From Mycobacterium paraseoulense (GTDB lineage Bacteria > Actinomycetota > Actinomycetes > Mycobacteriales > Mycobacteriaceae), in the NCBI RefSeq assembly GCF_010731655.1, contig NZ_AP022619.1, positions 3,162,001 through 3,226,000 of the forward strand: a stretch of 64,000 bases of DNA. The letters run 5' to 3'. Shown one piece after another: positions 52,183 through 53,101 of this stretch. The translations under genes were made by a program, and so were the position numbers. A model generated the notes under the pieces. It searched no databases and was not told where the DNA came from. It saw only the letters and a program-made list of their open reading frames with translations. Positions within the stretch are counted from its first letter, which is position 1. Every line of letters begins with the position of its first letter.

Positions 52183-52686
52183 ATGAGTGGACGTCACCGT
52201 AAGCCCAGCACGTCAAACATCAGTGTCGCCAAGATCGCCGTCACCGGCGCGGTCCTCGGTGGCGGCAGTATCGCCCTGGCCGCGCAGGCGGCCGCGGCCA
52301 CCGACGGCGAATGGGACCAGGTAGCCCGTTGCGAATCCGGTGGCAACTGGGGAATCAACACCGGCAACGGCTACCACGGTGGCGTGCAGTTCAGCTCGAG
52401 CACGTGGGCCGCACACGGCGGCGGCCAGTACGCCCCGTCGGCCGAATTGGCCACCAAAGAACAGCAGATCGCCGTCGCCGAGCGCGTGCTGGCCACCCAG
52501 GGCCGCGGCGCGTGGCCGGTGTGCGGTGGCCCGCTGTCGGGCCCGACGCCGCGCGAGGTCCCCGCACCGGCCGGCCTGGACGCTCCCCTGGATGCGCCCG
52601 GGATCAACGGCCAGCCGGCACCGCTGGCTCCGCCGCCCGCCGACGCGCCCCCCCCCGCCCCCGCCGGTACAACTGACGGGCTTTGA
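52183..52686 (+). CDS. rpfA: resuscitation-promoting factor RpfA, truncated by a frameshift
   Basis: The intact frame gives 167 residues. A signal peptide (about residues 1-48, ending QAAAA) is followed by the Rpf domain (about 49-124), a lysozyme-like peptidoglycan hydrolase. The catalytic glutamate is in ARCESGGNW, with a disulfide to Cys in AWPVCGG. The frame then enters a run of nine C (52648-52656) and stops at 52684-52686. Homology to full RpfA continues in the +1 frame to 53101, so with eight C the protein would be 305 residues. The truncated form keeps the catalytic domain but loses the Pro/Ala repeats and the C-terminal domain. Confidence 0.88.
   Translation: MSGRHRKPSTSNISVAKIAVTGAVLGGGSIALAAQAAAATDGEWDQVARCESGGNWGINTGNGYHGGVQFSSSTWAAHGGGQYAPSAELATKEQQIAVAERVLATQGRGAWPVCGGPLSGPTPREVPAPAGLDAPLDAPGINGQPAPLAPPPADAPPPAPAGTTDGL
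52648..52656 (+). repeat. nine-C homopolymer at the rpfA frameshift
   Basis: A run of nine C followed by GCCCCCG. Reading with eight C joins the two rpfA frames (DAPPPPPPVQLTGFDQ). It is either a slippage-prone tract or a sequencing error. Confidence 0.8.
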
Positions 52687-53101
52687 CCAGCCGGCACCTC
52701 CGGCGGACCTCCCGCCGGCACCCCCGGCGGACCTTCCCCCGGCACCCCCGGCTGATGTGCCGCCCGCCGACGCCATCCCGCCCGCGCCGCCCGCCGACCT
52801 GCCGCCGGCACCCCCCGCGGACCTCCCCCCGGCACCCCCGGCTGATGTGCCGCCCGCCGACGCCATCCCGCCCGCGCCGCCCGCCGACCTGCCGCCGGCA
52901 CCCCCGGCGGACCTGCCGCCGGCACCCCCGGCGGACGCACCCGTCGTCGTCGACGACTTCCACGGTTTCGTGCCGGCCAACATGCCGCAGGAGGTTTCCT
53001 CGGTTGGCTACACGAAGCAGCTGTGGGAGGCCATTCGGGCGCAGGACATCCAGGGCAACGACGCGCTCGACGCGATCGCCCAGCCGTCCCCGGCCACCTG
53101 A
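52657..53101 (+). pseudogene. rpfA: C-terminal part of rpfA in the +1 frame
   Basis: About 148 codons in frame with the upstream part only after loss of one C. The segment is PPADLPPAP-type repeats followed by the conserved RpfA C-terminus (GYTKQLWEAIRAQD, GNDALDAIAQP), which resembles the M. tuberculosis protein. Preserved coding sense shows that the break is recent, reversible or artefactual. No independent start with a ribosome site was seen. Confidence 0.8.
52741..52934 (+). repeat. rpfA: 90-bp tandem repeat in rpfA
   Basis: Two copies (52741-52830, 52831-52920) differ at about four bases near the end, and a third begins at 52921. Each encodes 30 residues of Pro/Ala/Asp-rich sequence around PPADVPPADAIPPAP, the variable-length region of RpfA. 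Confidence 0.85.

What the first reader, a model, noticed from the sequence alone, without database searches (positions are those of the whole stretch)
52648..53101. rpfA is split at a nine-C tract: possible phase variation of a resuscitation factor
Seen: the Rpf-domain frame stops at 52686, while codons in the +1 frame go on for about 148 residues with the PPADLPPAP repeats and the conserved RpfA C-terminus. Removing one C from the run at 52648-52656 joins them into 305 residues. Long mononucleotide runs are classic slippage sites. On/off switching between a catalytic-domain-only form and a full-length RpfA would vary peptidoglycan remodelling and dormancy exit. A base-calling error in the homopolymer is the main alternative.
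Basis: partly seen in the sequence, partly recalled or inferred. Interest (0 to 1): 0.75.

Follow-up and report, generated by a model that had tools for sequence, protein, structure and literature searches.

The report
Frame-broken rpfA at a C run
In this nontuberculous mycobacterium the gene for a cell-wall enzyme linked to waking from dormancy is interrupted at a run of nine C's, which is more likely a sequencing error or a one-off slip in an error-prone stretch than a built-in genetic switch.

Summary
A run of nine C (52648-52656) lies in the Pro/Ala linker of an rpfA orthologue; the Rpf-domain frame stops at 52686, and the repeats and RpfA C-terminus continue in another frame to 53101. It is the only C/G run of nine or more in the 6.09-Mb genome. 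In 62 of 70 genus genomes with both halves on one stretch the gene is one open frame. The downstream half still looks coding, so any break is young.

Phase variation is not shown: no reads and no second strain were available. Relatives do not share the tract; the longest C run is 7 or less in 60 of 62 intact copies, shorter than synonymous shuffling gives. The linker is hard to sequence: contigs end at it in 19 of 90 loci, against 1 of 90 genomes for rpfB, and one draft relative shows a poly-C stretch at the same site that looks miscalled.

My odds: run-length error 0.5, one-off real slip 0.3, phase variation 0.15, ribosomal slippage 0.05. If real, it resembles the known glpK tract of M. tuberculosis.

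The parts
51973..52170 (+). c-di-AMP riboswitch (ydaO/yuaA leader) upstream of rpfA
   Evidence: Rfam RF00379, 51.2 bits, the only match in the window at the gathering threshold. A ydaO homologue in the 5' UTR of M. tuberculosis rpfA is stated in PMC6009663 (passage).
52183..52686 (+). 5' frame of rpfA: signal peptide (by inspection), Rpf domain, start of the Pro/Ala linker; 167 residues, then a stop
   Evidence: PF06737 at residues 38-114, 122.8 bits; RpfB, RpfC and RpfE are the solved relatives.
52648..52656 (+). run of nine C in the linker, place of the frame offset
   Evidence: the only C/G run of 9 or more in the genome.
52690..52936 (+). Pro/Ala repeat linker, in the downstream frame
   Evidence: Tandem Repeats Finder: periods 24 and 90, both multiples of three.
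52943..53101 (+). conserved RpfA C-terminus with its stop, in the downstream frame
   Evidence: Matches 212 of 297 genus genomes; no Pfam or NCBIfam family. Third codon positions carry more differences than the first two together in 10 of 12 relatives.

Best explanation
This is an ordinary rpfA orthologue behind its usual c-di-AMP riboswitch. Its frame break in the assembly is most likely an error in the length or letters of the C run. The run lies in a very GC-rich, repetitive linker where short reads fail, so an otherwise good assembly would be poorly corrected at this one place. Shown: the break, intact copies in relatives, and the failure of draft assemblies at this linker. Inferred: that the cell's own run differs from the printed one.
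For: Contigs end at the linker in 19 of 90 loci, against 1 of 90 genomes for rpfB. In draft G232 the same site reads C17 and C11 with an unchanged 42-base spacing to flanks shared with G282, as miscalling would give and slippage would not (spacing counted by eye). In draft G061 runs of 12 and 11 C lie near a contig end in sequence without the expected flank. The downstream half is open to its stop and coding-like. The break is not shared with relatives.
Against: The genome is closed, one contig. Its counts of runs of 7, 8 and 9 or more (104, 1, 1) show no sign of general homopolymer trouble: 81 of 98 genus genomes have 0 to 5 runs of exactly 8 (my count of the list). I saw no other broken gene in the window, though the screen does not flag rpfA itself. 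Long-read errors in long runs more often shorten than lengthen them (recalled). The sequencing method of this genome is unknown to me.
Confidence: 0.5

Rival explanations
1. A real, recent, one-off slip of replication in this strain. It would make a secreted Rpf-domain protein without the repeat linker and C-terminus, and is not kept as a switch.
For: The run is the longest C/G run of the genome. A seven-base G tract is described as highly mutagenic in mycobacteria (PMC11898584, passage). The Rpf domain is whole, and three other Rpf-domain genes could soften a loss. Other breaks in the rpfA linker occur in G001, G248, G097, G241, G174 and L009.
Against: No reads confirm the run. The excess of rpfA over rpfB breaks is only suggestive: 5 of 67 against 1 of 69, P = 0.11; without G097, 4 of 66 against 0 of 68, P = 0.056.
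Confidence: 0.3
2. Phase variation: slipped-strand mispairing changes the length of the run at high rate and reversibly, so that cells make either a full RpfA or a short secreted Rpf-domain enzyme.
For: A single longest C/G run in the genome, both halves preserved, and homopolymer phase variation known in M. tuberculosis, as at glpK (PMC11898584, passages).
Against: The tract is not shared: longest C run 7 or less in 60 of 62 intact relatives, and 56 of 62 lie below their own shuffle mean. No second allele was seen. The two intact copies with runs of 14 and 17 are drafts, and the 17-run looks miscalled.
Confidence: 0.15
3. Slippage of the ribosome (or of RNA polymerase) on the C run gives some full-length RpfA from the split gene.
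For: In the upstream frame the run reads as three CCC codons. Absence of m1G37 in tRNA-Pro causes +1 frameshifting (PMC7577736, start of abstract in the listing). The downstream half is coding-like.
Against: The site is not conserved in relatives. I looked for no stimulating element. m1G37 is thought to suppress such slips in normal cells (PMC8643618, start of abstract).
Confidence: 0.05

Closest known systems
RpfA (Rv0867c type) of mycobacteria
   Same: Signal peptide, Rpf domain, Pro/Ala repeats and C-terminus, with the c-di-AMP riboswitch upstream.
   Different: Here the linker frame is broken at a nine-C run; in 62 of 70 genomes it is one open frame.
glpK homopolymer phase variation of M. 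tuberculosis
   Same: A mononucleotide C/G run in a coding region with a frame change at the run (PMC11898584, passages).
   Different: For glpK frameshifting indels recur in clinical isolates and both alleles are said to matter for fitness. Here there is one assembly, no second allele and no conserved tract.
espK coding-tract and espR upstream-tract indels of M. tuberculosis
   Same: Variable homopolymer tracts; the espK one shifts a coding frame (PMC11898584, passages).
   Different: Those were found by comparing many isolates; only one genome of this species was at hand.

Membership tests
RpfA orthologue | Rpf (PF06737) domain | tested here: met
   122.8 bits against a cut-off of 27, profile positions 1-77 of 77.
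RpfA orthologue | Pro/Ala repeats and RpfA C-terminus in one frame with the domain | tested here: not met
   Present but in another frame; in one frame in 62 of 70 genomes.
Homopolymer phase-variable gene | Long mononucleotide run at the place of the frame change | tested here: met
   C9 at 52648-52656, the only C/G run of 9 or more in the genome.
Homopolymer phase-variable gene | More than one run length within a strain or species | not testable with these tools
   No reads; one genome per species; the protein query did not complete.
Homopolymer phase-variable gene | Tract kept in relatives (supporting, not strictly required) | tested here: not met
   Longest C run 7 or less in 60 of 62 intact copies.
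Decayed pseudogene | Downstream half has lost coding constraint | tested here: not met
   No internal stop. Third-position differences exceed the first two together in 10 of 12 relatives, tie in L016, fall below in L010. Codon counts are less clear: changed residues equal or exceed silent changes in 5 of 12.

The most novel reading that the evidence does not exclude
rpfA of this mycobacterium is a contingency locus: a C tract unique in the genome toggles between an RpfA with linker and C-terminus and a short secreted Rpf-domain enzyme, so that a population hedges how it leaves dormancy.
Probability: 0.15. Interest if true: 0.65.

Novelty: new member of a known kind. Interest (0 to 1): 0.22.

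Why it matters
If real and reversible, it would extend homopolymer switching, known from metabolism and secretion genes of M. tuberculosis, to a dormancy-exit enzyme of another mycobacterium. If it is an artefact, it is a warning that rpfA linkers in public mycobacterial genomes should not be trusted without reads: contigs end there in 19 of 90 loci.

Tried and rejected
Old pseudogene: rejected as the main reading, because the downstream half is open and mostly coding-like.

General homopolymer trouble in the assembly: not seen. G000 has 104, 1 and 1 runs of 7, 8 and 9 or more. In one search, by my count of the list, 81 of 98 genus genomes have 0 to 5 runs of exactly 8.

Other frame breaks in the window: the screen matched 41, 45 and 46 coding-like ORFs of three relatives and flagged 2, 3 and 1; the looser screen flagged 2, 6 and 6. 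I looked at the flagged places: they are ORFs running across gene starts into non-coding or antisense sequence. Neither screen flags rpfA itself, so neither tests Pro-rich genes well.

Excess of rpfA breaks over rpfB breaks: only suggestive.

Literature: rpfA with frameshift and mycobacterium gave 9 papers, none with rpfA phase variation in its title; resuscitation promoting factor with homopolymer gave 2, neither on this by title; rpfA with homopolymeric gave 0. The main text of PMC8339072 has no 'rpfA'. Absence in print rests on these searches alone. The sequencing method and species name of this genome were not found.

Full report
What is there. The window lies in a closed 6,085,955-base genome. 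By the rpfA C-terminus its nearest named relatives include M. scrofulaceum, M. europaeum and M. parascrofulaceum, so I take it for a nontuberculous Mycobacterium; no species name was available. The gene starts at ATG 52183, behind a c-di-AMP riboswitch at 51973-52170. Its first frame encodes a signal peptide (by inspection) and a whole Rpf domain (PF06737, residues 38-114), enters a Pro/Ala linker and stops at 52684-52686. Nine C lie in the linker at 52648-52656. The repeats and the conserved C-terminus continue in another frame to 53101.

Relatives. The C-terminal piece matches 212 of 297 genus genomes. I examined 90 loci, one per genome, the window included: the 30 best matches and 60 of the following ones. 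Not fetched: the remaining matches, and a few listed ones among those 60, mostly near contig ends. Of the 90, 62 have both halves in one open frame. Eight are not continuous: the window; G100 and G150, which hold gaps of N; and G001, G248, G097, G241 and G174. In 20 one half was not found: 19 are cut by a contig end (by their coordinates), and in 1 (G023) the domain was not found on the stretch. One search also took two named contigs: L008, which duplicates G001, and L009 (Mycobacterium sp. 4858), also discontinuous. The other breaks are mostly shortened linkers; G097 has a seven-base run, and only the window has a run of nine or more. So intact copies exist and the window's break is not shared.

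How unusual the run is. It is the only C/G run of nine or more in the genome; there is one of eight, with no good coding frame across it, and 104 of seven. In 62 intact relatives the longest C run of the linker is 4 to 7 in 60 copies and 14 or 17 in two drafts. The mean is 5.8, against 7.3 after shuffling synonymous codons, and 56 of 62 lie below their own shuffle mean; shuffles reach nine or more in 17% on average. The family thus seems to avoid long C runs. That argues against a tract kept by selection, but does not exclude a strain-level event.

How trustworthy the site is. Contigs end at the rpfA linker in 19 of 90 loci. In the same 90 genomes rpfB, of similar length, is split over two contigs in 1 (G059), ends early in 1 (G097) and is full length to within a few residues in 88. 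In draft G232 the window's site reads C17 and C11, yet the distance between the flanking GACGCG and GTGCAA is 42 bases, as in the related G282 (counted by eye). Other letters replaced by C without a change of length is what miscalling gives; slippage would change the length. In draft G061 runs of 12 and 11 C lie near a contig end, in sequence without the expected flank. Against a technical cause: the assembly is closed, its run counts are ordinary for the genus, and I saw no other gene break in the window, within the limits of the screens.

Age of the break. Third codon positions of the C-terminus carry more differences than the first two together in 10 of 12 relatives (1, 2 and 10 against M. 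europaeum), tie in L016 (4, 2, 6) and fall below in L010 (4, 3, 4). By codons, changed residues equal or exceed silent changes in 5 of 12, so the constraint is moderate. This fits no break in the cell, or a recent one.

How it would work if real. The product would be a secreted Rpf-domain protein of 167 residues before signal cleavage, without most of the linker and without the C-terminus. The domain is whole, so this would be a change of form, not an off state. Three other Rpf-domain genes are present, so a strong effect on dormancy exit is not assured. Reversible change of the run by slipped-strand mispairing would make it a phase-variable gene like glpK of M. tuberculosis, where indels in a seven-base G tract recur in clinical isolates (PMC11898584, passages). 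Ribosomal slippage on CCC codons could also give some full-length protein; for that I saw only the starts of abstracts in a listing.

Verdict. Run-length error 0.5, one-off slip 0.3, phase variation 0.15, ribosomal slippage 0.05. Papers: PMC11898584, PMC8339072, PMC12817950, PMC6009663 and PMC8208694 were seen as passages; PMC9933685 was read as part 1 of 2; the rest as search listings.

Noticed in passing
L009, L025, L097, L111, L133, L141: rpfA of other mycobacterial genomes is also discontinuous inside or near the linker, by other kinds of break, two of them in assemblies of 1 to 10 contigs (G241, G248); artefact or real loss is open.
   Followed up: partly
L034, L032: Long poly-C stretches in the rpfA linker of drafts G232 and G061; in G232 the spacing to the flanks equals that of a relative, which suggests miscalled bases.
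   Followed up: partly
52943-53101: The RpfA C-terminus is conserved in 212 of 297 genus genomes yet matches no Pfam or NCBIfam family; its role is unknown to me.
   Followed up: no
G000:C1:3484872-3484881 (L064): The genome's only C/G run of exactly eight, with no good coding frame across it; could be a regulatory tract.
   Followed up: no
44050-44250: A stretch upstream of a minus-strand gene is very like that of relative G155 although it seems non-coding; a possible leader element.
   Followed up: no
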